Notes under the pieces: model-generated
Told to the model about the DNA's origin: nothing
Seen by the model: only the letters and a program-made list of their open reading frames with translations
The model's database searches: none
Translations under genes and position numbers: made by a program
Assembly: GCF_023973825.1 (NCBI RefSeq)
Contig: NC_090118.1
Location: 590,501-654,500, forward strand
DNA: 64,000 nt
Direction of reading: 5' to 3'
From: Plasmodium brasilianum
Lineage: Eukaryota > Apicomplexa > Aconoidasida > Haemosporida > Plasmodiidae
Shown: one piece after another, positions 32,410 to 55,506 of the stretch
Layout: each line of letters begins with the position of its first letter
How positions within the stretch are numbered: position 1 is the stretch's first letter

Positions 32410-33163
32410 TTATTTATTTATTTATGTATGTATTTTTTTTTTTATATTTTTTATTTCCTTTTTTTTCGTTTTGGTAGAATACTGCTTCTTCATTAAGGAA
32501 TAATACATTAATAAAGTTAGAATTAAGTGCGAGGGGATGTCCTAGAAAATTAGCTGAAAAAGCACAGCAGACGAATAATACAAATGCTCAAAGTTGTACT
32601 CGGACTGATTTGGCTAAAAAGAAAAAAAAAAAAAAAATGAAATGCCAATCGGAGGTACGAAAAATGATGTTACGATATATTTATCAAAAAAACAGATAAA
32701 TAAGTTAGTTAAATCATGTTCATGTTTTGTAAATAAGGACAAAATTTATAGTATATATTATTATTATCTTAAATGTAAAATTTCATGTTATCTTAAAATG
32801 ATGTCCAAAATAAAGAAAAATTTTTATAAAATGTGTAAACAAGAAGAAATACCTAATGATATATATGATCTTTACTGGACAGAATGTAAGAAAAAACTTT
32901 TTCAACATTTAAGAGAAATGAAATGTTCATCGAGATGGCAAACTTTTACGTTTCTAAATAAATCTGTAATAACTAATTATTCCTTAAATGTCTTCTTGGA
33001 GAATTTTGAAAATATATGGAATACTAATATTGATGTATATGGATGCAAGGCGGCTAAATTTTTAGAAAAAAAAGTAGATGATTATATTTCATTGAGAGAC
33101 ATTGAGAATTCCAAAAAAAAAAAAAAAAAAAATGCTGCAAGTTGCCAAAAAGGATATACTTAG
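32100..33163 (+). CDS. PHIST/RAD-like exported protein 1, frame broken in a poly-A run
   Basis: Two exons: 32,100-32,210 and 32,478-33,163. Exon 1 codes a signal/anchor (MLAKSGLKKCGVSGLTIALL and on). Exon 2 begins NTASSLRNN and has the export motif RKLAE (RxLxE, 32,544-32,558). A Lys run at about 32,612-32,637 breaks the frame; after it MPIGGTKNDVTIYLSKKQIN resumes in another frame and aligns with LPFGCTNEDISKNLSIEEVK of copy 2. The C-terminal domain (helical, IPNDIYDLYW, SSRWQTFTFLNK, FLENFENIW) resembles the PRESAN/PHIST domain. PHIST proteins are exported to the host red cell, where some bind cytoskeletal or adhesion proteins. The intron between signal and PEXEL is typical of exported genes. 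Either a homopolymer error or a young pseudogene. Confidence 0.65.
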
Positions 33164-33656
33164 GAAGGAAGGTAAGAATAACAGAGAAAGAAGATGGGGG
33201 TCCTCTAATAACCACCGAACGTACATATATAGAAAGGATATAATCATGAAGAATTTGTTTATATATATATATATACAGGTGCTTTGGTATTTTTTATTTA
33301 CCCCAAACGTTAGAAGTACGTCCGTCAGTATATATAATCGACCGGAGTATATTTTGTAGTATTGAAATACAGTAAAAGTGAGTTTGTTTCTTTATATATA
33401 TTTCCTAACATAAGAAAAGATTACTGTAGAAAACATTAGTTACCGTTATGATGATCATATTTTTGTGATACCAAAATCCTTTAAAAATTTGCAATTTTTA
33501 TTATTTTTTATATATAATCTTTTTTAATATATTTTTTTATTTATTACATTTTTTTGTTGTATATTATTTGTGCTAAAATTTGTATTATTTTGAACATGCA
33601 TTAATTATCCTCATTATTTTCTTATTTATAATATAATGCACATAAGAAATGATAAA

Positions 33657-33693
<37 letters not shown>

Positions 33694-33913
33694 TACATCC
33701 ACTTTACATCCCACTTTTAATGATATAAATTTTTATTTTTGAATGAACTTATAAAATTAATTGCACGGAAGTATTTTATTTTATTTTAATTTTTTTTTTT
33801 TTTTTTTGTCCCATTGGAATATGATTATATTTAAGTTTATATTCGATTTCACACAAAAAATGAGAGAGCATTTTCAATAGTACACTTTAATCTGTATGCA
33901 TATAACTATATAC

Positions 33914-33960
<47 letters not shown>

Positions 33961-34346
33961 GATAGATGGATAGATAGATACATGTATGTGTGTATATATA
34001 TAAATATTTCCTTATTTCTAGAAAGAGTAATATGCATTGATTAAATCAAAATTATCTGTAGCACCATATATCATGTATCAACTATATTATTCAATTTTAA
34101 GAAATAATATAATATGTTCTGTATTCCAGCTGCTGATAAAATTTTTAAGTAACCTGCTATAAAATTGTACTACGAAATAGTTAATTTTTGGTAGAATTAC
34201 TTCGTATAATCGATTTTTGAAAAATTCAACATATTTTCAAAATGTAGATTAATTATTATAAACAGGAGTAATTGTTTATAAGGCACTTGTTCTATATATA
34301 TAAATTGAAATATAAATATAATATATATATATATATTTATATATAC

Positions 34347-34377
<31 letters not shown>

Positions 34378-34689
34378 TATATATCCAATTAAAAGAAAAA
34401 AAAAAAAAATCTGGAATTTTATGAACAAGTCAAGCTACATGAAATATAAATGTATGTACTGTTCATAATTTTTATAACAATGATACCTTAAGTAGTTATT
34501 TTATTTATGAACATTCATAAATTTCATTTCAAGTACTTTTAATTTAATATATTCTACGTTTATACACATCTTCAAATTATTGTAATGTCATATGTTTATT
34601 TTTTTTTATGGAAATATAAATATAAACAAGTAAAAACAAAGAAAAATAAAATTATGAGTTTATATTTACAACGGCAATATTTTTTTTCT

Positions 34690-34846
34690 AGACTTCCCAT
34701 GCTCAGGGACTAATAATGACAACTCTGGAAGTGCTGGAAGTGACTGTCCTGGGTTTGATTACCATGCATTTGAATTCGCATGCCACGAAGATAACTTTTG
34801 CACCAGCAGGAAACCAGGTTTGGGCAGTAGTAAACCAATTTTTTTC
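34690..34846 (+). ncRNA. Candidate Pol III ncRNA element A (RUF6-like layout)
   Basis: About 157 bp that are clearly GC-richer than the flanks, about 1.5 kb downstream of PHIST1. It has CTGGGTTTGATTACC, a weak B-box-like word, in the middle, and the 3' part AGCAGGAAACCAGGTTTGGG leading to a T7 run. The 3' part is shared with element B. The A box is unclear, so this may be a decayed copy. Confidence 0.4.
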
Positions 34847-36254
34847 TCATTATATATATAATGTATAATATTATATGCATATATTATATGCATATATTAT
34901 ATGCATATATTATATGTATATATTATATGTATATATTCTTATATGTGTATATTATATGTATATAATATACGTATATATTCTTATATGTATAAAATAAATT
35001 TACTATATAATATAGCGAATAATATTAATATCATTTTTTATTTTATTTTATTTTTTTTTTTTTAAGTATATAATAAAGTTATTCATATTTATTTATTAAA
35101 AATGCTTCATTTGTATGTTTTATTTTTTTAATTATTCCAAAAATAGTTAATAAAAAATGAATAGACCTAGAAATATAATATTCATATATGTTCAAAGGAA
35201 AAACAAAGGATGTATAAATTTACTTGTTAATATATGAATAATTTTATTATTTATTTTATTTATATCAGGTTAATCAAACCGAAAAAAAAAAAAATAAATA
35301 ATCGAAAAAAAAAAAATTAATATAACAATTATATAAGGAAAAATTACGCATTACTATTTGGTCGTAGTGCATTATATATATATATATATATATATAATAA
35401 ATTTTAGATGTACCTTAATAATATATATAATATATGGAAAAGTTTAAGTAAACAATTTTACTTGTATTTTTTCAAAAATACATTTATTATATATATAATA
35501 GATGTAAATTTTAAATAATTATACTGGATTTATAAAAACACAATTAATTTAAAAAAATAAATAAAATTAAATAAGAAAACATTATTATCTGTTACATATC
35601 CTTTTAATTAATTATAAGAAAAAATAATAAAAAAAAATTAGTTAATTTTCTTATATCCCAAAGAATACTACCAACAGCAATTATACAAGCTGACTAGGAG
35701 AAATTAGAAATTCCTTTAGGATTATAAAAGTTGTCGGTGAAAATTTATATTCTTTCGTATGCTTATTATTCACAGAACAAGTGTTGACTAGTACAAATTT
35801 ATGTTTATTTTTATAGTTCTTATAATTTTTCATGTATACATATACGATCAATAACTTATATTAGTATACGCTCTCTCCGATTTTGACTTTCATACTCTTA
35901 GAGTTACGTTAGAAGAAAAAGAAAGTATATATATATATATACATATGTATACAAATATTCTATTGTAATAATTGTAAGAACAAAAAAAATTATAGCTACT
36001 ACGCATAAAAATAGTAAGTAAAAAGACGTATGAACGTTCATGTATATATAAAAGATTTAATGCAAGAACTTCTATCAAAAAATATTAAATGTACATAAGA
36101 ATTAATTTCTTAAACAAATTACCTGAATAGCGAATAATATATATCTATATCTATATATATTTTTAAATTTGCAAATACTTATTTAGCGTCCAGATTATTT
36201 TCTAAATGAATTTATTACAAAAGATAGAACATTTATACTATTGAATATATATAG

Positions 36255-36530
36255 TATATACAATTAATATATACATTTAATATATACATATAATATATAC
36301 ATATAATATATACATTTAATATATACATTTAATATATACATTTAATATATATATATAATATATACATATAATATATACAATTAATATATACATTTAATAT
36401 ATACATTTAATATATGCATATAATATATACAATTAATATATACAATTAATCTATACAATTAATATATACGATTAATATATACATTTAATATATACAATTA
36501 ATATATACATATAATATATATATGTATTAT
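36255..36530. repeat. 12-bp tandem repeat (TAATATATACAT)
   Basis: Over 20 imperfect copies of a 12-bp AT-only-plus-C unit (TAATATATACATT/A). The equivalent position in unit 2 (about 41,600-41,700) has an ATACATATACAT array instead, so these arrays expand independently in each copy. Confidence 0.85.
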
Positions 36531-36954
36531 TTATAAATTATTTACTTTTTGAAAAAAAAAGAACTACAGTATTCAAAATATTTAACACTAACATATATAT
36601 AGTATATTAGAAAAAGAACAATTTGTCAATACAAATGATCTGCATATTAGCATATTAATATATTAACCTTGTCAATATCTATTTCAGCCTTTGAAATTCA
36701 AATAGGCAAAATTACCATTTATAAAGGTAACATCCATAGCCTTCATGAAAGAAATAATAAATGAAAAATTATCATGTTACTGTAATTAAACTAAAAATTT
36801 TTTACTTATATATGATTACCATTTTATTTCTTGCATGTTTTCCAATTATACTTTTTCATACTAACCAGTTGAACTTTCACATCCTCTCCATTACTTCTTA
36901 ATTTATATTTTAGCTTACAGATAAAAAAAATATGAAAAAATAACACATATATAT

Positions 36955-37095
36955 GTACATGTATGCATATGTATGTATATGCATATGTATGTATATGCAT
37001 ATGTATGTATATGCATATGTATGTATATGCACATGAATGTATATGCACATGCATGTATATGCACATGAATGTATATGCACATGAATGTACATGTT
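36955..37095. repeat. 18-bp tandem repeat (ATGCATATGTATGTAT)
   Basis: About eight copies of an 18-bp unit (GTATGTATATGCATAT, later GCACATGAAT variants), open in several frames on both strands. No coding function supported. Confidence 0.85.
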
Positions 37096-37332
37096 ATATA
37101 TACATGTATATGTTTATGTATATGTATAAAACATATGCCGATATTACGACAATTATTCAACCTTTGCTTAAGTGTGCATATGTATACTCAATACTAATAT
37201 ATGTAGAATTTAACGAATATATAACATGATATTCATGTTATAAGAAAATGGACAAGGAAACATTATGATGAAAACACCTGAATAGTTCATGCATTTATAT
37301 TAAAAATTATCTGACTTGTGAATAATATAAGG

Positions 37333-37375
<43 letters not shown>

Positions 37376-37569
37376 TTTTATAGTAAGAACAACGTACTTA
37401 TATATTTTTTCCCCATAAAAGTGTAACAAATAGTTAATATACCATTTTAACCATTAACTAATTAATAAATTATTCTGCGTTAGAAATTTCCGTAATTAAA
37501 AAATTAATATTAAAATTATCAACTGATTATTATAAATCAAACTTATATTCTGCACATTTTGAGGAAAAT

Positions 37570-38568
37570 ATGCTTGCAAAGAGTTGTTTAAAAAGGTTTT
37601 ACTTGTTCGGATTTAGCATCTCCTGTTTGTTTGTTCTTCTAAATGTAGTGTTAAATAATGTATTATTAGTAGGAAAATTTGTATACCCTAAAAAGCGTTT
37701 TTAACTATAAATAATGCGTTGTTTGACATGCTAAAATAATAAGATTATTAATCAGTACACACTATATATATACATGAATATATATACACATGCATACATA
37801 TAATTTTTTGTTTTTATTTTTTTTTGGTAGAATACTATTTGTTTATCTAAAGAAAATGCATTGACAGAGTTACAGTTACATGTTTGGGGATGCCCAAGAA
37901 ATTTAGCTGATATTACTCAGAATGAAGAAAGTAAAAATGGAGAAAATAAAGTTGACGAAAATAACAATGGAGAAAATAAAGTTGACGAAAATAACAATGG
38001 AGAAAATAAAGATGACGAAAATGAAAATGGAGAAAATAAAGATGACGAAAATGAAAGTGAACATAATGAAATTATGAATGAATTAAAAACAAGTTTATCT
38101 GAACCAACATATAATCTACCATTCGGATGTACGAACGAAGATATTTCGAAAAATTTATCAATAGAGGAGGTAAAAAATTTAGCTGAAAGATGTTCGTATT
38201 TTCCAAAAAAGAGTGAAGGTTATTTCTTTTATCATTATTACTTTCAAAATAAAAGGACATGTTTTTTAAATATGTTATGTAATATAAAGACATTGTTAAT
38301 CAAATGGTCTCAAGAAAAACATATACCTAATGATTATTTTGAGGTATTATGGGAAGAATGTAAATTATATCTATTGGAATGTTTATCAGAAATGCAAAAT
38401 ATATCTAGGTGGAGTTTTTTTTATCTCATGACGAAATTTATAAGAACTAAATATCATCTTTTAGAATTCTTGGATAATTTTGACAAAATATGGGATACTG
38501 TTATTAAGAAATATGAAGAAAAATGGACTAAATTATTAGAAGAGAGAGTAAATAATTATGTAGCATAA
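37570..38568 (+). CDS. PHIST/RAD-like exported protein 2 (intact)
   Basis: Two exons, 37,570-37,668 and 37,831-38,568, giving 278 residues. Exon 1 is a hydrophobic signal (MLAKSCLKRFYLFGF then ISCLFVLLNVVLNNVLL). Exon 2 begins NTICLSKENA and carries a perfect PEXEL, RNLAD (37,897-37,911), after the conserved GCP. Then come an acidic repeat (GENKVDENNN, about five 10-residue units) and a helical domain from LPFGCTNEDISKNLS to the end with spaced Trp: IKWSQEKHIPND, VLWEEC, ISRWSFFYL, FLDNFDKIWDTV, EEKWTKLLEE. This spacing fits the PRESAN/PHIST fold. The product is expected to be exported to the red cell after plasmepsin V cleavage at Leu of RNLAD. Exact role unknown. PHIST/RAD identity is by pattern, supported by the known RAD cluster beside hsp70 in P. 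vivax. Confidence 0.8.
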
Positions 38569-40120
38569 TAAAACAAAAAAAGGGGAAGGGCATGTTGCCC
38601 TAAAATGAGCAAAAAAAAAAAAAAAAAAAAACAAGTGGCTCAAATAGTGAAAAAGGGAATTGCATTTAAGGCAACATCAGGCAAAAAAAAAAAAAAAAAG
38701 AATAGCAGTCAGCGGTGAAGCCTCAAACAAATTTTACCTCCATACACACTTATATGTATGTGTGCATAATCATATATTATATATATAAGTTCATGTGTAT
38801 TCTGTATTAACCGGAAAATAGTAGTACGTCCGTTAATAAGTAATTGAGAGGAATATATACTCGTAGTACATGAAATAAAGGCAGAATGATTTTTCGCCCT
38901 TATGTAATTACTAACATAAAAAATAATGATTGTAAGAGTTTTCTGTTCCTATTATCATCATCGTTATTGTTATACGAAATACTTGAAAATTAAAAAATTC
39001 TTTTTTTTTTTTTTTTTTTTATATTGTCTTTTTTAATTTATTTTTTCATTTATTAAATTATGTTATTGTATATTATTTGTTCAAAAGTTTGTATTATTTT
39101 AAATTTTTGTTTGTTATTTGTCCTCATTATTTTCATATTCGTAATATAATATATCATTATATATATATATATATATATATGAAATGATAAATATTGTTAT
39201 TTACAACATATTCGCTCTATATCGCTCCTTTTAATGATATAAATTATTTATTTTTTAATGGACTTGTAAAATTAACTTTAAGGAAGCTTTCTTTTTTTTG
39301 CTTTTCTTTCCCATGGCAATAACTATTTTTCGGTTTATATATACTCGAGTTAACGAAGTTAATATGATCTCAAGTTGCATTTTCCTCGTACATATAATAT
39401 GTACAACATGTACATGTACGTACATATATATATATATATATATATGCATATATGTAGAATTACAAATATTTAAACAGTGCTATGATTAGATAAAGCAATA
39501 ACATTTCTAGTGCTATATAATGCACAACATCATTATTGAATTTTGTGAAATGATATATATAATATTTTATATTACATCCCTACAGCTAACGAAAATTTTA
39601 ATTAACTCCTTAAAGGTGTAAGTAAGAAATAGCTAATTTCAAGTAATGTTTTTAATGTTCTTAATGGACAATCCTTTAATGAAACATTCCTTATATTTTC
39701 AAAATGAAGATTACTATATATGTGAGAACATACTTTATAAGATACTTCACTAGATAGAACAACGTATATAAATTTTTATTCAATTAAGAAAAATTAAGAA
39801 CAAGAATATATATGCAAGAACTTTATATGCACAAGTCAGGCAATTTGGAAGATAAATGCATTAACAGTTCATAATATTTCATAAAAATGCTTCCTTAAAA
39901 AGTGATTTTTTGTATGTACATTCATATAACATATTTCATTGAAGTACTTTGATTTTAATTTATATTTTACGTATGTACAACATTTTCGAATTATTAATAA
40001 AGTCTAAATAAGTCTTTTTTTTTTTTTTTTTTTTTTAAATATATTTATATATTCACAAGTAAAGGAATAAATAGAAAAAATTATAAGTATAATATTACAA
40101 TGGACTTTCTTTTTTTTCTC

Positions 40121-40272
40121 TTGCTGTTCCTTGCACGGCACCTAAGGAATGTTAACTATGGACATTAGGACAGCAGCTTCGAAAAAAAATGGTCTCTAAA
40201 TTTGCAAAACAACGTTTTATCATTTGTATTAGCAGGAAACCAGGTTAAAGGGTAGGAGCATACGCATTTTTT
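40121..40272 (+). ncRNA. Candidate Pol III ncRNA element B (decayed copy)
   Basis: About 150 bp, at the same place relative to PHIST2 as element A is to PHIST1. It has TTGCACGGCACCTAAGG at the start and AGCAGGAAACCAGGTTAAAG followed by GGGTAGGAG at the 3' end, then a T6 run. An A run (40,182-40,189) interrupts the centre and no clear B box remains. Confidence 0.35.
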
Positions 40273-41359
40273 GGTTAATTATGTATATATATAATACATA
40301 TATTTGCTTATAATATAGCGAATAATACTATTTTTTTTTTTTTTTTTTTTCTCTCTTTTTTTATATTTATTAAGACATTCAATTCATATTTACTGATTTA
40401 TTGAATTTCAATTGTATAATGTTTTATTTTTTTTTAATTAATCTAAGAATAGTAAATTAAAAATGAATGGAGATAAAAATATATAATATTTATATATGTT
40501 CAAAGGAAAAGCAAAAAATGTTAAATTTTACTCATTAATATATGAGTAATTTAATTAGGTATTTTCATTATATCAGATTAATTATAACAAAAAATAAACA
40601 TAAAAAAATAAATGCAAATAAATAAATGCAAATAAATAAAAGCAAAAAAATAAATGCAAAAAAATAAATGCAAAAAAATATATGCAAAAAAATAAATGTA
40701 AATAAATAATTGTAAAAAAAAAAAAAGAAAAAATGAACAATATTTTTAAGCAAAATTACACATTACCATTTGGCAGTGTAAATAATGGATTATATATAAT
40801 TTTCATAATATATTAACATAAGCAAAAATTTAAGTAGGATTTGCATGTATTTTTTCAAAAATATGTGCATCACATATAACTATAATTTTTAGATTATTGC
40901 ATTAATTTAAAAAAATATATATTTTATTTAACAAAAAACAAAATAAGTAGAAAATAATAAAATAACATAAAAAGCATATTATATATATATATATATATCC
41001 TATTATTTAATGATAAGAAAAAATGATGAAAACAATATAGTGTAATTTTATGATATCCCTAAGAATACTACATTCTACTGATGGTAATTCTACAAATTGA
41101 TTAAAAGGAATCAATAATCCCCTTAAAATTAGCAAAGTTGACGGTAAAAATTCATAATTATTGATTGACTTTCACTGCACCTAGTGTCGACTTGTAAAAT
41201 ATTATGTTCATTCGTATTATTCTCATAATTTTTCACGTATGCATATACGGTCCGTAATTTATTTTAATTTACTCTCTCTCTATCTATCTCTCTCTATCTC
41301 TCTCTTTCATTTTCCCTTTCATATTCTCTGATAGTTACATTAAAAAAAAAAAAAGAAAG

Positions 41360-41395
<36 letters not shown>

Positions 41396-42412
41396 TATAT
41401 TCTATTGTGATAATTTCAGAAAAAAAAAAACATTATAGCTACTATATATAAAAAAAAATAAATAAAAATAAATATGAATGTTCATGTATAAAAAGGGCGT
41501 AATGTAACAACGTTTATTAAAAAATATTGTAAGTACATAGGAGTTAATTTTGTGTACAAATGTCCTGAATAGTTAATGATATATCTATCCATCTATATAT
41601 ATACATGTATACATATATACATATACATATATACATATACATATATACATATATACATATACATATATACATATACATATATACATATACATATATGTAT
41701 TCTTCAATTTTCAAATATTTTGTATATAGACTAGATTATTGTTTAAATGAAATTATTACAAAAGATAGAGTAATTTTTTATACCTTTGATTACATGTAAT
41801 ATTTATATAATATTATATATAAATCCATTTCCATTTGAAAAAAAAAAAAAGAACTACAGTATTCCAAATATATAATGCTACCATATATCGTAAATTAGTA
41901 AAAAAATAATTTGACTATTACTGATGATCTGTATTAACCTTGTAATTAAGTATTTCATTCCTTGAAATTCGAATTGGTAACACTACCATTTAAAAAGGTA
42001 ACTTCCATATCTATTGAAAAAAAAATAATAAATAATAAAATGATATTTTATTGTAACAAAAATTACAAAATTTTCCTTATATATTATTAGCATGTTTTTT
42101 TTTTTTGTTTTTCTTTGTATGCTCGTGATTTCAATTTTTCCAAACCAACCAGTTGAACTTTTATATTCTCACCATATTTCTTAATTTATATTTAAGCATA
42201 CATCTAAAAAAAAAAAATATACATATACATATATATATATATATACGCAAAACTAGTATATACAGAATTTAATAAATAAAAGATATAGCATGACATTCAT
42301 ATAATAAAAAAATTAGGAAGGAAACATTCTGCCGAAAACGCCTGAACAGTTCATGCATTTTTATTTTAAATTACCTGACTTGTGAATAAAATATAAGGAA
42401 TTTTTTTTTTTT

Positions 42413-42593
42413 AGTTATATTTGTATATTGAGTACCGAATTATATTTTTTTTCTATTTAAAATTTTAACAAATAGTTTATCTAACTTTTTAACTTTTAAC
42501 GAATTAATAAATTGTTCAGAATTAGAATTTTCCGTAATTAATAAATTAATTTTAAAATTATTAACTGATTATTATTTATTAAACTTATATTCT
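42413..42593 (+). promoter_or_regulatory. PHIST3 upstream block, copy of the PHIST1 block
   Basis: 181 bp nearly identical to 31,901-32,081 (one difference by eye). It ends about 18 bp before the PHIST3 pseudogene ATG. Confidence 0.7.
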
Positions 42594-42611
42594 CCCCATT
42601 TTGAGAAAAAT

Positions 42612-43475
42612 ATGATTACGAACAATGATTTAAAAAAGATTGGTTTATCCGGATTTACCATCGCCCTATTTATTTTTTTGAATACCCTGTTATCAGTAGG
42701 AAAATTTTTACACGTAAAAAGTGCTTAACTGTAGATTCTTTGTTTAATACGCTAAAATGATAAACGTAGTAAGTCTGTATATATATGTATACATATATAC
42801 ATATTTTATTATTATTATTTTTTTTTTTTTTTGTAGAATTCTGTGTCTTTATAACAAGATAACTTAATATGAGAGTTCCACTTAAGTAAGCGTGGATCCT
42901 CCAGAATATTAAATTATGTATCACAAGGAATAAAAAATGATGATGCAGAAAAAAAAAATGTTTTGAAGGCACTTTCAAATCATCCACTTGTAACTCAAAA
43001 TAGACCTAATTTGCCTTTCGGATGTAAGGAATCCGATTTAGCAAACAAATTATCAAAAAAGGAGTTAGATCAAAAACTGAGAAAATGTTTTACAAATTAC
43101 ATAAGTAAGAAAAAGGCTTATATTATTTTTTAACATTACAGTGAGTATCTGAGGTCACTTTATGTTGATATGATGCATAAATTAGCAAAGGAATATGCAA
43201 AATGGTCTAAAAATAAACTACCCAAGGATGAACGCGATTTTTACTCGTCGCACTGTAATAAAAAACTTATTTTGAATTTAAAAGGAATGGAATATTCTTC
43301 TAGGTGTCGTTTTATTATTTTAATGAAGTTATCTTTAATATCGTATTTAAAATTTCCCTCTTTTATTAAGCTCAATAAGAATATATGGAAATTGGTTATT
43401 GAAGGAGATAAACACAAATGTTCTAAACTTTTAAAAAAAAAAAGTAATGGATTATACATCATCATAAGGGGTTGA
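42612..43475 (+). pseudogene. PHIST/RAD-like exported protein 3, pseudogene
   Basis: Exon 1 (42,612-42,695) is intact: MITNNDLKKIGLSGFTIALF and on, 28 codons, with the same splice donor GTAGGAAAATTT as the paralogues. Exon 2 (42,837-43,475) has three in-frame stops: TAA and TGA within its first 12 codons (after NSVSL and DNLI) and TAA at 43,130 (AYIIF-stop-HYSEYL, where copy 2 has GYFFYHYYF). Between stops it aligns in a single frame with copy 2: LPFGCKESDLANKLSKKEL, KWSKNKLPKDERDFY, YSSRCRFIILMK, KLNKNIWKLV. The export motif has decayed to RILNY and the conserved Trp of SSRW is Cys. The stops are scattered and none is tied to a homopolymer, so this is true decay. Confidence 0.85.
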
Positions 43476-45852
43476 AATAGTCAAAAAAAAAAAAAAAGAA
43501 AAAGAAACTGAAGCGAAAATGATGCGAAAATGATGCGAAAATGATGCGAAAATGATGCAAAAGAGAGAACAGGACCCCCGCAGTTAAGGGACAGGCAAAT
43601 AAAAGGTAGCTAGTGAGAAATGCTACATGTTACGACCTTCGCACATATTATATATATATACATACATACATAAATACATACACTTATATGAAGTGTGAAT
43701 AAGTGCTATTATGTTATGTATATATTAAACAAATATGTGCATATTTTTTACTAACCAGAAAAGAAGTTATAGTAGTACGTTAGTTTGTAAATAATCGAAA
43801 GGAACATATATATTCTGTAGTATTGAAATAAAGGAAAAATGGACGTTTCTCAATATATGTATATATATATATATTCACCGACAAAAAAAAAAAGATTATT
43901 GTAGGAATCGCCTCTTATTATTTTTAATATCATTAGTGTTATACGAAATGTCTTATACATGTTAATGAACAAGCGTTATCTTAAAAGATATATGAGATAT
44001 GTTCAATTTTGCATAAATAAATTAAAAATTTGGTAATTATTTATTTATTTATTTTGTTGTCAAACCTTTTTTAATGTACTTTTTATTTGTTAAATATTTT
44101 ATAATTGTTCATTACTAATTGTGTATAATTTTGTACAATTTAAAATATTTGTTTCTATTTTATCCGCATTATTTTCACATTCGTAAAATAATTTTTATAT
44201 ATTATAAATGTAAAACCAAATGCTATTATATACATCCGTCTTTTCATGTTATTATACAAATTTTTATTTTTTAATAAACTTATAAAATTAATCTAAAGTA
44301 TTTCTAATTTTTTTTTTTCCAAACATAAATGAGTTGTATATATATATATATATATATATTTATTTATTTATCTATATTTATATATTTTTATTTATTTAAA
44401 TACAAGAAATCGTATCAGGAGTAAAATAGATACAGTGCATACTGTTAAATGGGCGAAATGCTTTTCATAACTGAAAATTTTCTACTTTGGCAATACAAAT
44501 TTTAACCCTTATACTTTTTTTAATGTATAGTTCTTATTTTTTTTAAATATAGGAATTATCAATTTTATTAGTGTCTTTAAATAAATTTGCTTCTTTAATT
44601 ATTATGTTGAGATTTATAATTTTCTTTTTATGCTTATTAAATTGTGTACATTAATGATAAATATTATTTTAGATTATTATAACATTGTATTATAAGAAAA
44701 TACCTGACCTGTTAATAATAATATGAATTAAATGGGTTATTTATTTAATTTTTTTTTTTTTTTTTTTTTTACTGTGAGTAAATACTCATGTAATATATTA
44801 CACTCTTTTTCATGTAATGTTATTCACTACTTCTAGATTCTTACTGGAAATTCCCTTTTCTATGTGCATAATATGTTAATTGGCTATTAAACAATTTTTC
44901 AGTACTCATTACAAATCAGTATTATAGACATATTACCAATTATTATGCATATATATATATATGCATGTGTGTGTGTGTGTGTGTATACATATGCATGTAT
45001 TTATTTACGAACTCCAGCAGGTTTATTTTGTATGAATATTTCTCATAATAAATATTGGTAATTTTCTAAAACACAGGAAATGTAAGTCATTCTGAAATTT
45101 TGAAGTGAATACATACATGTAGTTTTCCTATACCTCAATAGAAATAATTATTTAATTGTATTATACTTATGACATATATATAATTTCTTTTCCTTTATGA
45201 TTTGTTCATAACAGTAGTATATTATGTTGTATGAGTATTTCATTGCGAATAATCTTATTATTGGACTATAATACCATAGAATACATACTACAATAAAATG
45301 CAAACATTCTTTCAAAATATATTAAAAATGAACATATTACAAAAAATTTAGTACTCCACTAAATACAGTAACTCAAAATTTGCCCGACTTGTACAGGTAA
45401 ATATTCAAATTTTTCCTAAAATGATGAATTAGCTGTATCAATTTTTACTATATCGAAAATGGTATTTCATAATAGTGTTTACAGTAATAAGCTACATAGT
45501 GCAAATATTTTGTTCATTATGAAAATAAGGTAAAAAATTATATAATAAAATTAAAAAGGAAAACAAGTACATGTAGAATATATTTATAATAAAATAAATA
45601 AAATTTCTGTAATGTTGTTAAGTGGGATATTATAAATGAGAAAGCAAAATATTAAGTATTATTCAGGAATAATCAATCAAGCATAATATTACACATAAAC
45701 TCTTTTTTACCTATTTCTATTTTTTCATATTTATTTTTATATAATTTTTACTGATGTAATGTCCCCCTTTGTTTATTCGTTAATTTTTTTCTATGTACTT
45801 AAAAAGATAATTTGCTTTATATATGCACGAAAAGCTTTTATAGTGCTGTATG

Positions 45853-45883
<31 letters not shown>

Positions 45884-46296
45884 ATACTATTCCTGTAGAG
45901 AAGGCAAGAAAAAAAAATATTATATTTCATTAACTATACAAAAATAAATAAATATAAACATAAAAATATATATATAATTTATTTGGCGATGAGTAAGAAT
46001 ATGCATGAATAAAATTTAAATAAAATATAAAAATTTTCTATGGTTCATCCGAAGTGCTTACACTTATAGTAACAATTCCCTGATGTGCGCACAAATTTTC
46101 TGTATTTTTTTTTTTTTTTTTATAAAATTTTAAATTATATTATTAATATAGTTTATTTCATAAATGTTTATTAACAATACGATACAACTTTATATTATTC
46201 TTTTTCTGTAATACATATATATATGCATTAAGTATGAAGAGTTAAAGCATTTCATATTACCATTCAAAGTATTTCATTCTAATATAAAAGAATGTG

Positions 46297-46450
46297 AAAA
46301 ATTAATTCAATGTGCACTTACCTCAATCTTATTATTATAAGAGCATGTGCATGCTAACATTGTCAGGAGGAGTCGGATACAATAGTATTCAAATATAAGA
46401 CCCCCCATATCGGAAGTTAACATACTTAGCATCAAACCATTGTAGTACAA
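46297..46450 (-). ncRNA. Candidate ncRNA element C (decayed copy)
   Basis: Minus-strand element aligned with D and E: head ACAATGGTTTGATGCTAAGT, a GGGGGG run, then GTTAGCATGCACATGC and AAGATTGAGGTAAGTGC at the 3' end, followed by T5. The shared AGATTGAGGTAA with D and position of the T run support homology; no good B box. Confidence 0.4.
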
Positions 46451-46584
46451 ATAAATATTATTTTCATTCCATTTATACTTATAATTCTTTACTTATATAA
46501 GGATTCTATGTTTTGCATTAATAAGATCGAAATTTTTTTACATTTTTATAAGACCCCTTTTTCACTTTTGTATTCTCCCCATTT

Positions 46585-46755
46585 TAACTCATATATACTT
46601 GCCACTTTATAACTCATATATACTTGCCACTTTATAACTCATATATACTTGCCACTTTATAACTCATATATACTTGCCACTTTATAACTCATATATACTT
46701 GCCATTTTATAACTCATATATACTTGCCACTTTTTAACTCATATATACTTACCGT
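46585..46755. repeat. 25-bp tandem repeat (CATATATACTTGCCACTTTA)
   Basis: About seven copies of a 25-bp unit (TAACTCATATATACTTGCCAC plus TTTA), nearly perfect apart from the last copies. It lies upstream of element C. Confidence 0.92.
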
Positions 46756-47196
46756 TATTTCCTCCTATATTTTTTCCATGTGCACATAAATGAAAAAGAA
46801 TGAAAAAAAAAAAAAAAAAAATCAGTGTTTCAATAATTATCGATCTGTATGTATAGTTAACTTCTATTTACATAAAATTTAATGGACGAATAAAATTAAA
46901 ATTCATAAATAGATAAAATTAACACATTCAGTATTTTCCTTAATGGTTCCTTAGGGATAACTACTTGTAGCACCACTAATTACATGACTTGTTCATAACA
47001 TGGAGGAACATTTTATTTTTATTTTTCAAAATTGCAAAAACCGGTTTAAGAATTTGGGTATTTTTTTAATAGTGCTTAATGCAACTAATCATTTTTAATG
47101 GTATTTATTTATTTTTTTTTTTTTTAAATATATTTGACAAGTATAAAGAGAAACATAATATTAAGTTATTTCATATATTTGATGAAATTTATTAAG

Positions 47197-47350
47197 AAAA
47201 AAAAAAATTTGGTGGGTTCCTATTACCTCAATCTAACTTTATATAGAGGATCCAAGTGTTAACATTGTTGTATGACTTTCAAGGCCCATTGATTCAAATT
47301 TTCGACAAGTAGTTCCAAATTCAACATCTTCAGTAACTTCTCTAGGAAGG
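47197..47350 (-). ncRNA. Candidate ncRNA element D
   Basis: Minus-strand element with head CCTAGAGAAGTTACTGAAG like CCTAGCGCATTGGCTAAGC of E, then GTTAACACTTGGATCC and TTAGATTGAGGTAATAGG at the 3' end, and a T11 run as possible Pol III terminator. A degenerate ATTTGAATCAATGG stands where a B box would be. An open frame of 66 codons across it is probably chance. Confidence 0.45.
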
Positions 47351-47779
47351 AAAAGAAAATTATTTTGTCGCTGTGCTTATATTCATGATTTTTTATTTTC
47401 TTATATAGGCAAAACATTTTTCTTTCGTTTGTACAAGGGAAAACAACAAAATATGACACTGTAATACATGTTTGAATATATTTATATAAATAAAATAAGA
47501 AAAAATCAAACGAATTAAACGAAATATATGTATGAACATAAAAAATTAAAAAAAATATTAAATTTAAAGAAATTTATGATGTGTACATAAATTTATATTT
47601 AATATTACCTGACGCATGCGACACTGGTTATATTATATATTTTTTTTTTTAAATGTATCCAATAAAAATCATACACAGCTGAGATTAAATTATTTTTATT
47701 TTAATACATATACATAGTGAACATACAATTATAATAAGTAAATATTATTACATTGACATTGCTAATGTAAAAAAGATAT

Positions 47780-47926
47780 AAAAAAATTTGATCGACTCCA
47801 TCCCAAGTACTCCCTCGCAGTGATTCATATTAGTATGTTGACTTGTGAACGCCTGATACCCCGGGACTTGAACCAGTTACTATCACTTCCTAATCAACAC
47901 GCCTAACCACTGGTGTACGAGTCGCT
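47780..47926 (-). ncRNA. Candidate Pol III ncRNA element F (A box, B box, T7)
   Basis: About 147 nt on the minus strand and markedly GC-rich for this region. B box GGTTCAAGTCC (47,864-47,874) matches the consensus GGTTCRANYCC fully. The A-box-like ACACCAGTGGTTAGG lies about 42 nt upstream, the normal tRNA-type spacing. The transcript would end in T7 (47,780-47,786). It does not fold as a tRNA: no 7-bp acceptor stem and a mismatched T stem. The part after the B box, including TCAACATACTAATA, is shared with element G. Best copy with G. Confidence 0.6.
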
Positions 47927-47956
47927 TAAAATTATTCTGTATAATTATAATTATAC

Positions 47957-47989
<33 letters not shown>

Positions 47990-48394
47990 GATTTGATAAA
48001 AGTATACATACATAAAAAAAAAAAAAAAAAAAAATTAAAAATATACCCTCTACAGTGTGTACATATATAAAATTAAGTTATATTAAAATGTATAATATTA
48101 AAAAATGTTTTTTGAAAAATGAGGATTTTCTTAAACACAAAACGTTTTATCTACAAGTTTTATGAAAAATTATGAACAGTAAATATTTTTATATCTCAAT
48201 TTGCCTGACTTGTGCATAATTATAATATTATGCATTCTTACAATTTTTTATTTTTCATAAAATTTGTAAAGACACATACACTGTTAATTTATTTTTTATC
48301 TGGCATTTCATATAAATTAAACGAATTTGATAGTATTTGATACAATTTGTTAGATATGAATAAATGAACAAAACTTTGAGATATTTAAAATGTC

Positions 48395-48545
48395 AAAAAA
48401 AAGAGTGGTGCGCCCCCTACCCCAATCTGCTTTTGCTATAAATCCGGATGTTAGTTTTGTCGTAAGGGTTTGTAGACACACAGATAGTAACCTTAGACAC
48501 TTAGTTTTAAAGTCAGCATGCTTAGCCAATGCGCTAGGAACAGCA
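48395..48545 (-). ncRNA. Candidate Pol III ncRNA element E
   Basis: Minus-strand, about 150 nt. A-box-like TAGCGCATTGG fits TRGYNNARNNG. The 3' part CTAACATCCGGATTTATAGC...AGATTGGGGTAGGGGGCGC ends in T8 (48,395-48,402). The same 3' part occurs in H (AACGTCTGGATACACAGC...AATTGGAGTAGGGAC) at similar spacing. No perfect B box. Confidence 0.5.
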
Positions 48546-50770
48546 AGAAAATAATACTATTATTGTAACTGTACTTATTATTTTTTTTTTTCTTTATATT
48601 TCCGTAATATTTCACTGTTACATAAACATTAAAAAAAAAAAAAAAAAAAAATTGATGTTCTGATAGTTGCTGGAATAGATATAAATTCAAAATTAAATTG
48701 CTCATTCATGAAAATGAATAATTATTGAACATTTTTTTCTTCGTGAATTTACAATAAAGTTAGAGAAGAGAGATTATCGATATTTTTGTTCTATCTTATT
48801 TTTCTTGAACAGGTAATATTATTTTGTTAACTTAACTTTAATTTTCTTCTTAAAACATTGAAAAAAAAAAAAAAAAAAAAAAAAAGGAATATTAATTTCA
48901 TTGAGAATATTAAAGGAAAATATAAGTTTTTATTATGTATCGACGAAATTTTTTTCTATTATTGTATATCTGTTCGAGTTACCAAATCAATGTTGAACAC
49001 GAAGTATATGAGCATAAATGTTTTTATATAACAAAATATTTTCTACTAAAGGCGGAAATACCTTACCGAAAGTAGGTTTATAGAAAAATTAAATATTAAC
49101 CTGTACATGTCAGGTGATAAAGTGATTTAGAGTTTAAAGATATAATTTCGTACAGCTAGTTTATTTAACATATTTACATAATATAGTTTTTGCTGCTTAT
49201 GCTTAGGAGTACGTTGTGCTGTAGAAAAATGTTAGTGTACATAACAATATATTTTTTTTTTTTCGGGAATTGATTTATAAAATATACATATTGTCACTAA
49301 AAAAAAAAAAAGAAACAGTACAAGGTTGAACGAAAGTTTTTAATCATTCACATGTAAAATTTTCTTTAAAAATATAAAGCATAGAACAAAAGAAATGATA
49401 AGAATTTCATAGTTTTCAATTTTTACCGTAAAATATTTGGAAGCTTTTTTTGATTTTTTTGTAGCCTCATTCATCTATACCATTACTACAACAGATAATA
49501 AGAATATGTATCATTTTTAAGATATATTTTGCTAAATAGAGGAAGAAGATTGTATCGAATATTACAATAAAAACATATTGCTATAACTGCATAGCTCTCA
49601 CAGTATTGCGAACAAATAAAGAAAAATAAGAAAAATAAATAGCCTTCAGTGCTTCTCGAGCATTTATGAAAATATTACGAGAAATTTTCATTTGAGGAAA
49701 TATGAACTAGGGTTGTTATACGTGTTTCCCTAATATAGGAATATATTTTATATGCACTGTTGAAATATACAGTAAAGAAACATGTATATTATTTAAATTT
49801 TGTACATACTTTTTTGTTCTTTTATAGTATATATATATGTATATATATATGTATATATATATTTATATGAATATATTTATATGAATATATTTATATGAAT
49901 ATATTTATATGAATATATTTATATATATGTATGTATTCAAGAAGACCAATTTTCTTAGTCCGACGAAACAATTTAAGAATGGAACTGCTCTGTAAGCTAT
50001 TGTTACTGCATAGATGAGCTGCATATATATCAAGGATAAACTAGGATGTTAATATTACGCATAATTATACTTTTCTTTTTTATTAATGCAACAGAAAAAA
50101 AAAAAATACAGTATATAATACATAAACTAAATACTCTCTCTAGTTTAAAAAAGTGTATGAATTAGGAAATAACATATAAATGTAGATAATAATATATCAT
50201 CTCCATTAGCACTATTTATTTCATATATATATAAAAACTAGTGCTATTACATATATATATTCTTATATATGTTTCGCCCCATATATTTATTTTTGTATTA
50301 AGAAATATATGTTTAATGATAATATATGTTCATAGTACAAATTTTTAAAAATACTATGCATTAAGATATTCATAAACTTATAATAAAGGAAACGTAATAT
50401 ATGATTCTTGTATAAAAAGAATAAAAAAAATATATATTAGCAAGCAAATAAAAAAAAAAAAAAAAAAGGAAAGTAACAATATTACAGCATTATGAATAAG
50501 ACAGGCACTTTATAACAAAAATATATGTACTGTTCATAATTTTATATAAAAATAATTCCTTAAAAAGTTTTTATTTATGAACGTGCACATTTTACATTTA
50601 ATTACTATTCCTTTTATGTATTTTGAGTACATACACATGTTCAAGTAATTATTTGCATTAAAGTGTTTTTTATGCTTGTGAATGAAGAGGTGAAAAGTTT
50701 GGCATATATATGAAAAAAAAAAAAAAAAATTTTGAGTATAATTACCATATCAAGATAATTTTCTTGCCTT

Positions 50771-50913
50771 CTTTTCCAAAGTGGTTATGGATATTAATTT
50801 TTGAGAGTAACTGTTGAGTATTCGAGTTCCTCGGATCCCAAACTCTTGTTAATAAAGTTAACGTCTGGATACACAGCAAGTTAAATTGGAGTAGGGACAC
50901 ACCATTTTTTTTT
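50771..50913 (+). ncRNA. Candidate Pol III ncRNA element H
   Basis: Plus-strand, about 143 nt. A-box-like CAAAGTGGTTATGG and, about 42 nt on, B-box-like TATTCGAGTTCC (50,819-50,830). The 3' part shared with E runs to a T9 tract (50,905-50,913). It therefore links the F/G type (boxes) with the D/E type (3' part). Confidence 0.55.
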
Positions 50914-51213
50914 AATTTCCAATTATGAATGAATTAAGTATATTTTTCCTTATATGTAATAAATAATAAGAATATTTTATAATTTCATTTTGTTCTAATT
51001 GAAAAATGTAATAACCATCACTTACGTTTTTCGATTAAAATGAAATAATTAAAGGATGAAAAAATGCAGCAAAATTATGGGCAGGTCAGGCGATATAAAA
51101 TATAAAAATTATTAATGTTCATAATTTTTTATAAAACTTTTACATAAAATATTATATGCTTAAGAACATTTATATTATTCATGTAATTATTTGAATATTA
51201 TACAATTTAATGT

Positions 51214-51285
<72 letters not shown>

Positions 51286-51423
51286 TAATAATTAATGCAT
51301 TGGGTATATTTTTATTTTTTTTTTCGTTTTTTTCCGGATGAATATAGAGCATATATATATATATAACGCAAAAAAATAACGCAAAAAAGAAAACAAAAAA
51401 AAAAAAGTATAAAAATTTTTTAC

Positions 51424-51610
51424 GCGGCTCTCATTGCAGTGGTTAAGTTTCCTTATAATGACGATTTGACGGAAACTGGTTCAAGTCCCAGGGAAACAAG
51501 CTCTCGGTTTTCACTAGTCAACAAACTAATACGACCACTGTGTGCAAATACCAAATACCAAATACAAAATACCAAATAACAGGGATAGGGTCCCTTTAAA
51601 TTTTTTTTTT
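51424..51610 (+). ncRNA. Candidate Pol III ncRNA element G (A box, B box, T10)
   Basis: Plus-strand. A-box-like TTGCAGTGGTTAAG and a perfect B box GGTTCAAGTCC (51,478-51,488) about 41 nt later. The shared stretch AGTCAACAAACTAATACGA follows as in F. A small ACCAAAT repeat (51,548-51,577) is inserted before the GGGATAGGGTCCC end and T10 (51,601-51,610). No tRNA fold. Confidence 0.6.
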
Positions 51611-53099: not shown

Positions 53100-55506
53100 T
53101 TATGCCTCTACCACGGGTGAAGTTACGGGATAGCTTATTTTTTTTGAATATATTTCCTTGGGTTTTAAATAAGATAATTTTTTATTTGCTTCTTTCATTC
53201 TGTTTAATCTTTCACGATCTAATCTTTTTCTATATAACTTATCTAGTTTTGTACTTTCTTTTTTTAATTTATCTACTGTTTCTAATTTTTCTGCTGGATC
53301 TTCTGGATATGGTATGACTATTAATTTATTTTTCTTTCGTTGTGGTATATTATGCTTTCTATATCCTGTTGTATTTTTGTTTCTCTCTCTTATTAATTCT
53401 TTCTCGCGTTCTTTTCTTTCTTTACTATTTATAGCTGCTATTTTATTAGCTAATTGTTTTCTTTTCATAATTTTTTCTTTAACTTGAATTTCCTCATTTA
53501 ATTTTTCATGTTCCTTCTTTTCAAGGTCTGCGATTCTATTTTCTAACCATTCTCGGAACAACCTTTCTTTAAATGCTCTTTCTTGTCCTGACTTTTTTAA
53601 ATCACCCATTTCCCCCGGAGTATCATCACCCTCTTGTTCTTGTTCCTCTTCCAGTTCTTCTTCTTCTTTTGTTAATTCAACATGTTCATCTTCCATTTCG
53701 GTTTCTTTATCCTCTTGTTCCTCCTCTTTCTCTTGTTCCTCCTCTTTCTCTTGCTCCTCCTCTTTCTCTTGCTCCTCCTCTTTCTCTTGCTCCTCTTCCT
53801 CTTCCTCCTCCTCCTCCTCCTCCTCTTCCTCTTCTTCTTCCTCACCTAAATTACTATCATATAAATCCTTTAACATTCCTACTCCCCTTCTGTTATGCTC
53901 ATTTAAGCGTTCTCTCATAATTCTTTCATATTCAATTCTATTCTTTACCCATTTTTCATGGGCTTCATCTTTTTTTTCTTCCCATTTCTTCTGTTGCATA
54001 TCTCTTTTTAATAGTTGTTTTTCTAATCTTTGATTTCCTATTTTTTGTCTATTTAATATGCTTTCTTTTTGAATACCTCTTAAAACATCATACTTTGTTA
54101 CAGGAGGTAAGGCAGCATAATATTCATGTGTTTTCATATTTTCTTCATATAAATCTCTATCAACTCTTTTTTTTGAATATCTACAAACATTCACTTTGTA
54201 TGTAAGAATTTTAATCCATTTTATTTTATTTAATTCAAATGCTGCTATCCACGCATCTGCTTTACTATTCAAATATTTAACAAACGTATCTTCATCATAT
54301 GGAAAACCACTATTAATAACATAATTCGTAAAATCAGCTTCTGTCATTTTTTGTAAACTATCTACATCTTTAGATAAATTTTTAACACAATCATTCCATG
54401 CATCTGTTTTTTTCTTTGAAATCATTTTTAAATTTGTTGCTAAGGTATTAAAATTTTTCCATATTTCATTCAAAATAATATAAAAATAATATCTTTGACA
54501 TGATCGTACCTCATATAGAATATTATGGATTTTATTATAATCTTCAATAATGTCATTAAATGGTTTCAATGTTTCTTCTCTTCCATTATAACTTAATAAA
54601 TTATCGAAATATTTTTTCATTTCTAAATTGAATGGTGGTTTATTCTCTCGTCTTACATTCTCACCAAATAATATATTACCAAATAATACTTCTCTTTTTT
54701 CATTAAACTTATCAATTTCTTCACGTTTTCTCTCATATTGTTCTTTTCTTTCTTTCCTTTGTCTTTCTTTTTCATATAAAGGAATACTTATATCTTTTAA
54801 TAACGATGTACCATATGGTACTTTTTCAACTCCTTCTTCTTCTTCTTCTTCTACTTCTTCCTCTACTTCTTCCTCTACTTCATCTTCTAAATCTTCTGTA
54901 TCATCAGTGGGTTCTTCCTTCTCTTCTACATTAACTTCCTCCTCAACTTTTTTAGGTGGCACAGCTGTACTACTGGCATTTCTATCATCACTATCTTGTA
55001 CTTCCGTATTCTCAAAAGGTAAAGGATAACCTTCTTCTGGTGCACGAAAATTTCTTGAATATATACTTCTTTTAGAAAACCCAAATGACTTTGCTACTGC
55101 TTTCTTTTTCCTTTGTGATTGTGCGGGTCTATGTGCTTCTACGTATATATTCCCGTTGGACGAGAGAACATCGTTCTATAGAGTGGGAGAAAACGAGGTT
55201 GTTTTATTATAAGTGTATAAACACAATCTACAAGGGTGTTTATAACTCAAATCATGCACACAGTACATGCATAAATAATATTCATATATATATTATATGT
55301 ATGTATAACATATATATGAGGCATCGCTCACATACGGCACGATCTACTACTGCATAACGCGCCTCCAATAAGGCACTATTTTCATTTCACTGCGTATGTT
55401 TTTTTCCTTATGTGCTTACTAATAACACAAGACTAATTACAAGAATCAGCCAATTCATAGGCCTCGTCGATGAGTTATTATTTTTCAAATTCCATCTTCT
55501 TGACAT
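53100..55506 (-). CDS. PHIST-like exported protein 4 with Glu-rich C-terminal half
   Basis: Two exons on minus: 55,506-55,420 (29 codons) and 55,175-53,100; 720 residues. Exon 1 codes a basic start and a hydrophobic anchor (MNWLILVISLVLL); the donor GTAAGC follows in phase 0 and exon 2 starts with Asn, exactly as in the three PHIST genes. No canonical PEXEL is seen; RSIYS near residue 60 is the nearest. A helical domain at about 200-330 (KKTDAWNDC, DFTNYVINSGF, FVKYLNSKADAWIAAF, NKIKWIKIL) has the Trp spacing of PRESAN/PHIST. The C-terminal half is long coiled coil (RxxLEKQLLKRDMQQKKWEE), a pure Glu tract and EKEEEQ repeats (53,700-53,850), then a basic tail. The architecture recalls large PHIST proteins with C-terminal extensions. 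The exon 1 and PHIST assignments are mine, by reading. Confidence 0.65.
53700..53855 (-). repeat. In-frame Glu-rich repeat in PHIST-like gene 4
   Basis: Four copies of an 18-bp unit coding EQEKEE next to an uninterrupted run of about 17 Glu codons with mixed GAA/GAG use. The plus strand is open here too (Leu/Pro-rich) but is a shadow. Confidence 0.9.

What the first reader, a model, noticed from the sequence alone, without database searches (positions are those of the whole stretch)
34690..51610. A dispersed family of Pol III-type, GC-rich ncRNA candidates inside an exported-gene island
Eight elements (A 34,690; B 40,121; C 46,297; D 47,197; F 47,780; E 48,395; H 50,771; G 51,424), on both strands, stand out as GC-rich islets of about 145-190 bp. 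Each ends in a run of 5 to 11 T in its own orientation. F and G have a perfect B box (GGTTCAAGTCC) with an A-box-like word about 42 nt upstream; H has weaker versions of both. E and H share a 3' part, D and C share another part of it, and F and G share TCAACAWACTAATA after the B box. None folds as a tRNA. Layout, size, GC contrast and position among host-interaction genes resemble RUF6 RNAs beside central var genes of P. falciparum. I know of no such family described at PHIST/RAD clusters. Homology to RUF6 is not shown.
Basis: partly seen in the sequence, partly recalled or inferred. Interest (0 to 1): 0.88.

Follow-up and report, generated by a model that had tools for sequence, protein, structure and literature searches.

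The report
RUF6-like Pol III RNA gene family
In a malaria parasite that has no var genes, about 25 short tRNA-promoter-like RNA genes sit in two clusters on one chromosome and look like distant relatives of RUF6, the RNA that helps switch on the var immune-evasion genes of Plasmodium falciparum and is described as absent outside its close relatives.

Summary
The genome fits the P. brasilianum (P. malariae-type) assembly. All eight islets are one family: a profile built only from nine copies elsewhere finds seven at E <= 1.6e-6; the eighth, G, is tied in by DNA similarity. I count 25 copies, all on contig C5: 8 plus 2 relics in the window, 15 in a second array about 300 kb away. Ten of 25 keep an A box, near-perfect B box and T run; no such combination lies elsewhere in 114 kb. 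The Rfam RUF6-5 model, run on the whole genome, gives six matches at E <= 10, all in this family; three align in register over full length, the three identical F copies only at their 3' end. Best score 30.3 bits against a cut-off of 70: probable distant RUF6 homologues, not formal members. A 2022 paper says RUF6 occurs only in var-bearing Laverania. Transcription and function are untested. Only F and G of the eight keep a good B box; the other six look decayed.

The parts
34685..34845 (+). Element A, type I, B box with 2 mismatches
   Evidence: model R1 E 6.5e-9; boxes; sequence
36638..36761 (-).
   Evidence: model R1 E 8.8e-5, filters off; sequence
40117..40271 (+). Element B, type I, decayed boxes
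   Evidence: model R1 E 4.9e-9, filters off; sequence
41908..42032 (-).
   Evidence: model R1 E 9.6e-5, filters off; sequence
46300..46453 (-). Element C, type I, decayed; sister of second-array copy C5:947017 (96/89 support)
   Evidence: model R1 E 1.2e-6, filters off; tree
47201..47358 (-). Element D, type I, decayed B box
   Evidence: model R1 E 1.7e-19
47780..47931 (-). Element F, type II, A box with 2 mismatches, perfect B box at 47864-47874; copies identical over the element at C5:938789(-) and C5:945502(+)
   Evidence: RUF6-5 model match 20.7 bits, in register only at the 3' end
48397..48551 (-). Element E, type I, A box with 1 mismatch, decayed B box
   Evidence: model R1 E 7.9e-27
50759..50913 (+). 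Element H, type I, A box with 2 mismatches, weak B box
   Evidence: model R1 E 2.7e-19
51418..51607 (+). Element G, type II, perfect B box at 51478-51488, extra CAAATAC-like repeat before the terminator
32618..33163 (+). PHIST gene part (PRESAN domain), neighbour
   Evidence: Pfam PF09687 E 3e-15
37831..38568 (+). PHIST gene part (PRESAN domain), neighbour
   Evidence: Pfam PF09687 E 3.7e-12
43134..43475 (+). PHIST gene part (PRESAN domain), neighbour
   Evidence: Pfam PF09687 E 2.4e-7
53100..55175 (-). PHIST gene part (PRESAN domain, 691-codon frame), neighbour
   Evidence: Pfam PF09687 E 6.7e-9

Best explanation
A family of about 25 small noncoding RNA genes with internal (type 2, tRNA-like) RNA polymerase III promoters, in two arrays on one chromosome of a P. 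malariae-type parasite, probably sharing ancestry with RUF6 of Laverania parasites. Proposed working: TFIIIC/TFIIIB bind the A and B boxes (inferred from the boxes); Pol III makes a GC-rich RNA of about 135-150 nt that ends at the T run (inferred from the T runs); the RNA, or the act of transcribing it, modulates Pol II transcription of exported-protein genes such as the neighbouring PHIST genes, as RUF6 does for var (inferred by analogy only). The set evolves by local duplication, gene conversion and decay, so about ten copies look functional and the rest are pseudogenes or relics.
For: One family: a model built from nine second-array copies finds the window copies at E down to 8e-27; the arrays interleave in the tree, at least 3 changes forced by the well-supported branches, bootstrap not fully settled (20 of 25 copies). 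Pol III anatomy: 10 of 25 copies have A <= 3 and B <= 1 mismatches with a T5+ run; all 10 such sites in 114 kb are family members; three mononucleotide shuffles gave 0.3 on average. Box spacing is 43-44 nt in 9 of these 10 and 46 in G. Element more conserved than spacer: mean pairwise identity 0.58-0.77 over the element and 50 nt upstream, 0.23-0.59 in the AT-rich flanks (11 of 16 type I copies). Internal T4+ runs 10 against 23 A4+ runs in 21 distinct elements (dinucleotide-shuffle P 0.037). RUF6 link: whole-genome search with RF01581 gives 6 matches at E <= 10, 6 of 6 in this family; none of them is at any of the 44 tRNA places. Three type I copies align over 1-156 of 156, with the B boxes in register in the two alignments displayed. 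RUF6-5 consensus against 15 type I copies, end to end: z 6.7, 0 of 400 shuffles as high; with both boxes masked z 3.5, 1 of 400.
Against: No transcript, ChIP or chromatin data. All RUF6-5 scores are far under the gathering score (30.3 against 70), the same model gives sub-threshold matches in 5 of 14 control genomes, and only 37 of 1030 first-look candidates were scored, so the tRNA comparison is not exhaustive. Three of the six matches are the identical F copies, and there the model's 5' end lies on the B box of F with most of the model skipped, so only the 3' end is in register. Only 3 of 16 type I copies were matched, none of them in the window. Type II alone is not significantly similar to RUF6 (z 1.3). 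With a profile of 21 copies, the eight best nhmmer hits printed were all shuffled sequences, not the RUF6 consensus. Single-copy Smith-Waterman beats every shuffle in 3 of 25 copies. Covariation of the RUF6-like closing helix is not significant (61 of 500 shuffles as high) and two other helices show none. Internal T-run depletion is not significant against mononucleotide shuffles (P 0.18) or for T5+ (P 0.13). With looser boxes (A <= 3, B <= 2) 3 of 17 sites lie outside the family, control 2.0. Most window copies have lost the B box. PHIST genes flank one array only.
Confidence: 0.58

Rival explanations
1. tRNA-derived pseudogene (SINE-like) repeats: once-functional tRNA genes that picked up a 3' part, spread by tandem duplication and now decay, with no role.
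For: tRNA-like A and B boxes; 15 of 25 copies have 2 or more B-box mismatches; relics J and K; 11 of 14 start-to-start intervals in the second array are 563-736 bp (coordinates).
Against: No RF00005 match to any copy in the whole-genome search (63 of 884 candidates scored) and no ARAGORN call in the window or the five loci scanned; element and promoter region more conserved than the spacers; apart from AT-rich microRNA models, the best Rfam match of three type I copies is RUF6-5, full length.
Confidence: 0.21
2. Boundary (insulator) elements: the arrays act as DNA, binding TFIIIC without a needed RNA product, like tDNA barriers or TFIIIC-only sites in yeasts (recalled, from no call), and fence off the PHIST island or organise the chromosome.
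For: Perfect or near-perfect B boxes in 10 of 25 copies; copies lie between consecutive PHIST genes and in a 21-kb stretch between housekeeping-type genes.
Against: Conservation runs through the whole element to the T run, not just the boxes; T-run ends are kept in 20 of 21; a RUF6-like 3' end is shared. None of this excludes a boundary role in addition.
Confidence: 0.13
3. Convergence: an unrelated Pol III RNA family that resembles RUF6 only because both have tRNA-type promoters, raised GC and T-run ends.
For: RUF6-5 scores are sub-threshold, three of the six matches are out of register at the 5' end, type II is not significant, and the nhmmer family profile did not rank the RUF6 consensus among its eight best hits.
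Against: 6 of 6 whole-genome RUF6-5 matches fall in this family and none on the 44 tRNA places; with both boxes masked the type I similarity still beats 399 of 400 shuffles.
Confidence: 0.28

Closest known systems
RUF6 / GC-rich ncRNA family of Laverania (Rfam RF01581 RUF6-5)
   Same: Size class (135 nt published; 146-186 nt with ends here), GC-rich islets in AT-rich DNA, internal A and B boxes, T-run end, multicopy (15 in 3D7), near exported multigene families; match over 1-156 of 156 model positions for three type I copies.
   Different: Best score 30.3 against a cut-off of 70; GC 0.32-0.46 (relics J and K 0.24-0.26) against over 0.50; no var genes in this lineage; next to PHIST genes or between housekeeping-type genes; arrays with two diverged subtypes and many decayed copies.
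tRNA genes and tRNA-derived SINEs
   Same: Type 2 Pol III promoter, box spacing about 44 nt, T-run terminator.
   Different: Not recognised by the tRNA model or ARAGORN where tested; unlike a tRNA 3' half; no genome-wide dispersal: copies found on one contig only.
TFIIIC-bound boundary elements / tDNA insulators of yeasts (recalled)
   Same: B-box clusters beside genes likely to be silenced (inference).
   Different: Here the whole RNA-length element and its T-run end are conserved.

Membership tests
RUF6 (RF01581) | Score at or above Rfam's gathering score (70 bits) | tested here: not met
   best 30.3 bits in the whole genome, 0 over cut-off
RUF6 (RF01581) | The RUF6 model's matches in this genome lie in this family | tested here: met
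   6 of 6 matches with E <= 10, 37 of 1030 candidates scored; 3 of the 6 in register over full length, the 3 identical F copies only at the 3' end
RUF6 (RF01581) | Internal A box and B box for Pol III | tested here: met
   10 of 25 copies with A <= 3 and B <= 1 mismatches plus T5+; the other 15 are weaker
RUF6 (RF01581) | Length about 135 nt with GC over 50% | tested here: inconclusive
   146-158 nt including ends, 186 for G; GC 0.32-0.46, high against surroundings but under 50%
RUF6 (RF01581) | Adjacent to central var genes | tested here: not met
   neighbours found are PHIST, SNF2-type helicase and GatA-like genes; P. malariae is listed with 0 var genes in PMC5326575 (passage)
RUF6 (RF01581) | Transcribed by Pol III, clonally variant | not testable with these tools
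   no expression data held
RUF6 (RF01581) | Needed for transcription of a variant gene family | not testable with these tools
   needs knock-down in the parasite
tRNA | Cloverleaf recognised by RF00005 or ARAGORN | tested here: not met
   44 RF00005 matches in the genome, none on C5; ARAGORN 0 in the window and in the five loci scanned, which hold only part of the second array

The most novel reading that the evidence does not exclude
RUF6-class Pol III RNAs are older than, and independent of, var genes: an ancestral Plasmodium RNA family that served exported-gene clusters such as PHIST, was kept as arrays in the P. malariae lineage, and was recruited to var control only in Laverania. In this lineage the repeated arrays may also have supplied the inverted repeats for the published pericentric inversion of chromosome 5.
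Probability: 0.4. Interest if true: 0.9.

Novelty: new variant of a known kind. Interest (0 to 1): 0.73.

Why it matters
RUF6 is treated in print as tied to the var-bearing Laverania (PMC9670795, passages; also PMC6974570, passages), and conservation only in Laverania was one of the selection criteria for its candidate protein partners (PMC9670795, passage). A homologous, partly intact family in a parasite without var would mean that the RNA's basic job is not var-specific, would give a comparative system for separating conserved RNA features from var-specific ones, and would let one ask whether Pol III output controls exported genes across Plasmodium. It also offers a concrete, testable list of promoter-intact copies.

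Tried and rejected
Rejected: tRNA, or a known Rfam family above threshold in the window. Rejected: coding explanation; of 66 stop-to-stop frames of at least 75 codons in 29-64 kb, one (104 codons, 47259-47573, minus) runs over most of D, and an 88-codon frame lies antisense to one second-array copy. Rejected as chance: the B-box word at C1:608248, without the rest of the element (by eye). Hits outside C5 in the two long-query DNA searches fall mostly on A/T runs of the query and were read as low-complexity noise; two such places were fetched (L064, L065) and the family model found nothing there below E 0.3; the rest were not inspected. Rfam E-values in evalue mode are unreliable for AT-rich models (microRNA models reach 1e-6 on AT repeats), so I rely on where RUF6-5 matches fall, not on their E-values; the tails of those lists (7 and 20 rows) were not shown.

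Led nowhere: protein database search with the 53100 PHIST frame (none of 7973 scored candidates matched); RUF6 oligonucleotide words in the text of three papers (none found); covariation tests of three helices (none significant). The chromosome 5 inversion idea could not be tested: no P. vivax gene order is held, and naming PF3D7_0820000 as ortholog of the SNF2 gene is a guess from recall.

Rows dropped: one search used 15 type I copies (J, K, x9413, x9470 left out) and 4 type II (the two identical copies of F left out); one search used 11 of 16 type I; one search used 20 of 25; one search printed 23 and tested 21 of 25 (J, K, then the two F copies left out); the nhmmer profile used 21 of 25.

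Full report
What the window is. The host genome has 31,374,054 bases in 43 contigs and the window is C5:590501-654500. The published P. brasilianum assembly is 31.4 Mb in 14 chromosomes, 29 unplaced contigs and two organellar genomes, its chromosomes 98.4% identical to P. malariae (PMC9671904, passages). I take the genome to be that assembly and C5 to be chromosome 5; the tools gave no name. Window frames with domain hits include an HSP70 (20466-22547, -), two Brix-domain frames and four PRESAN (PHIST) frames.

The observation. All eight islets are real. Aligned in the right orientation they are one family with two subtypes: I (A, B, C, D, E, H) and II (F, G) (split 100/100). DNA searches of the genome with window sequence turned up a second array at C5:938.2-950.7 kb. 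A sequence-only profile (R1) built from nine type I copies of that array, with no window copy in it, found E, D, H and A with default filters and all eight plus two relics, J and K, with filters off. G (E 0.026) is within the noise of that search; its membership rests on similarity to a type II copy. In the second array the profile found one more decayed copy (C5:941265, E 7e-13) and one at C5:947017 (2e-8); two type II copies there score only 0.06-0.08 and rest on DNA similarity to each other and to F (73-74%). Total 25: 10 in the window, 15 in the second array. Searches with one type I copy (4 matches), one type II copy (7 matches at 6 places) and a 26-nt pattern with up to 3 mismatches (7 matches, control 0) found nothing outside C5. 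The profile itself could not be run on the whole genome, so very diverged copies elsewhere cannot be excluded.

Anatomy. From 5' to 3': an A run, a TATAAT-like stretch within 50 nt upstream, the A box, a word resembling an anticodon arm (TGTTAACTTTGGAA in type I), the B box, a GGGATAG-like 3' motif shared by both types, and a T run. Ten of 25 copies have A <= 3 and B <= 1 mismatches with T5+ downstream; 10 of 10 such combinations in 114 kb are family members, against 0.3 on average in three shuffles; with B <= 2, 3 of 17 lie outside, control 2.0. By the strict criterion F and G are the only promoter-intact window copies and eight are in the second array. Identity among 11 of 16 type I units is 0.58-0.77 over the element and its 50-nt upstream region and 0.23-0.59 in the flanks; the flanks are very AT-rich, so chance identity there is higher than in the element. 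T-run ends: 20 of 21. Internal T4+ runs are mildly depleted (P 0.037 by dinucleotide, 0.18 by mononucleotide shuffles).

Evolution. The arrays interleave in the tree, so both subtypes predate the split into arrays. A 4.3-kb stretch of the window (44192-48318, with C, D and F) matches C5:949332-945118 in inverted orientation at 75%, and other stretches match directly. F and its two copies are about 99-100% identical over roughly 590-690 bp and drop abruptly to 35-79% outside: recent gene conversion between sites 300 kb apart, or an assembly error. P. malariae chromosome 5 carries a published pericentric inversion relative to P. vivax (PMC5326575, passages); inverted repeats 300 kb apart are a suitable substrate, but I could not place the breakpoints.

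Relation to RUF6. In evalue mode Rfam's RUF6-5 model (RF01581) matched three type I copies over all 156 positions at 30.3, 27.6 and 26.7 bits; the two alignments shown (30.3 and 26.7) have the B boxes in register. It matched the three F copies at about 21 bits, but in the one alignment shown the model's 5' end sits on the B box of F and most of the model is skipped, so only the 3' end corresponds. No window type I copy was matched (for C, D, E, H; rows shown for A, B). Over the whole genome the model returned six matches at E <= 10, all six in this family, with 37 of 1030 first-look candidates scored. The genome has 44 tRNA matches, none on C5 and none at a RUF6-5 match. Against shuffled RUF6 consensus, 15 type I copies give z 6.7 (0 of 400) and 3.5 with both boxes masked (1 of 400); type II is not significant (z 1.3). 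Summed Smith-Waterman over 23 distinct copies is 494 against 394 +/- 20 (0 of 1000), but only three copies individually beat every shuffle. Against: scores far below the gathering score of 70; the eight best nhmmer hits of a 21-copy profile were shuffled sequences, not the RUF6 consensus; the model rings below threshold in 5 of 14 control genomes; covariation of the closing helix is suggestive only.

What is in print. PMC9670795 (passages) says RUF6 genes are 135 nt, over 50% GC, have canonical A and B boxes and are conserved only in Laverania species that encode var. PMC6974570 (passages) says the family is conserved throughout Laverania and that its CRISPR interference represses var. PMC5326575 (passages) annotated ncRNAs with Rfam 12 and lists no var genes in P. 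malariae; matches at 30 bits would not pass a 70-bit cut-off. Ten library searches were made. For RUF6 with malariae three papers hold both words, two were listed, and by title and abstract start both are P. falciparum population surveys. No listing that I saw named such a family outside Laverania; most subscription papers are not in that library.

Most likely working. Pol III gene family (about 0.85 on anatomy); distant homologue of RUF6 (about 0.65); regulator of nearby exported genes (about 0.35, by analogy only). The confidence of 0.58 is for the first two parts together.

Noticed in passing
window 47496-48273 (F with flanks) against about C5:938.69-939.28 kb and C5:945.25-945.94 kb: Near-identical tracts of about 590-690 bp around element F with sharp edges (99-100% inside, 35-79% outside): gene conversion over 300 kb, or an assembly artefact.
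   Followed up: partly
window 44192-48318 and C5:945118-949332: 4.3-kb inverted repeat (75%) about 300 kb apart on C5; possible substrate of the published chromosome 5 pericentric inversion.
   Followed up: partly
window 46590-46740: Short tandem array with a unit of about 25 bp (ataactcatatatacttgccacttt), six to seven copies, between elements C and D (by eye).
   Followed up: no
window 32618-43475: PHIST genes and elements alternate in a repeated pattern (PHIST, plus-strand element, minus-strand relic, PHIST ...), as if PHIST and its RNA elements had duplicated as one unit.
   Followed up: partly
C5:931.9-953.0 kb (L060-L062): About 21 kb between an SNF2-type helicase and a GatA-like gene that holds the 15-copy array; its two longest frames gave no Pfam hit, shorter ones were not scanned.
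   Followed up: partly
window 1-46000 and L059-L063: Rfam microRNA models (mir-297, mir-3149, mir-1277 and others) give E-values down to 1e-6 on AT repeats; read as spurious, a warning for evalue-mode scans of AT-rich genomes.
   Followed up: no
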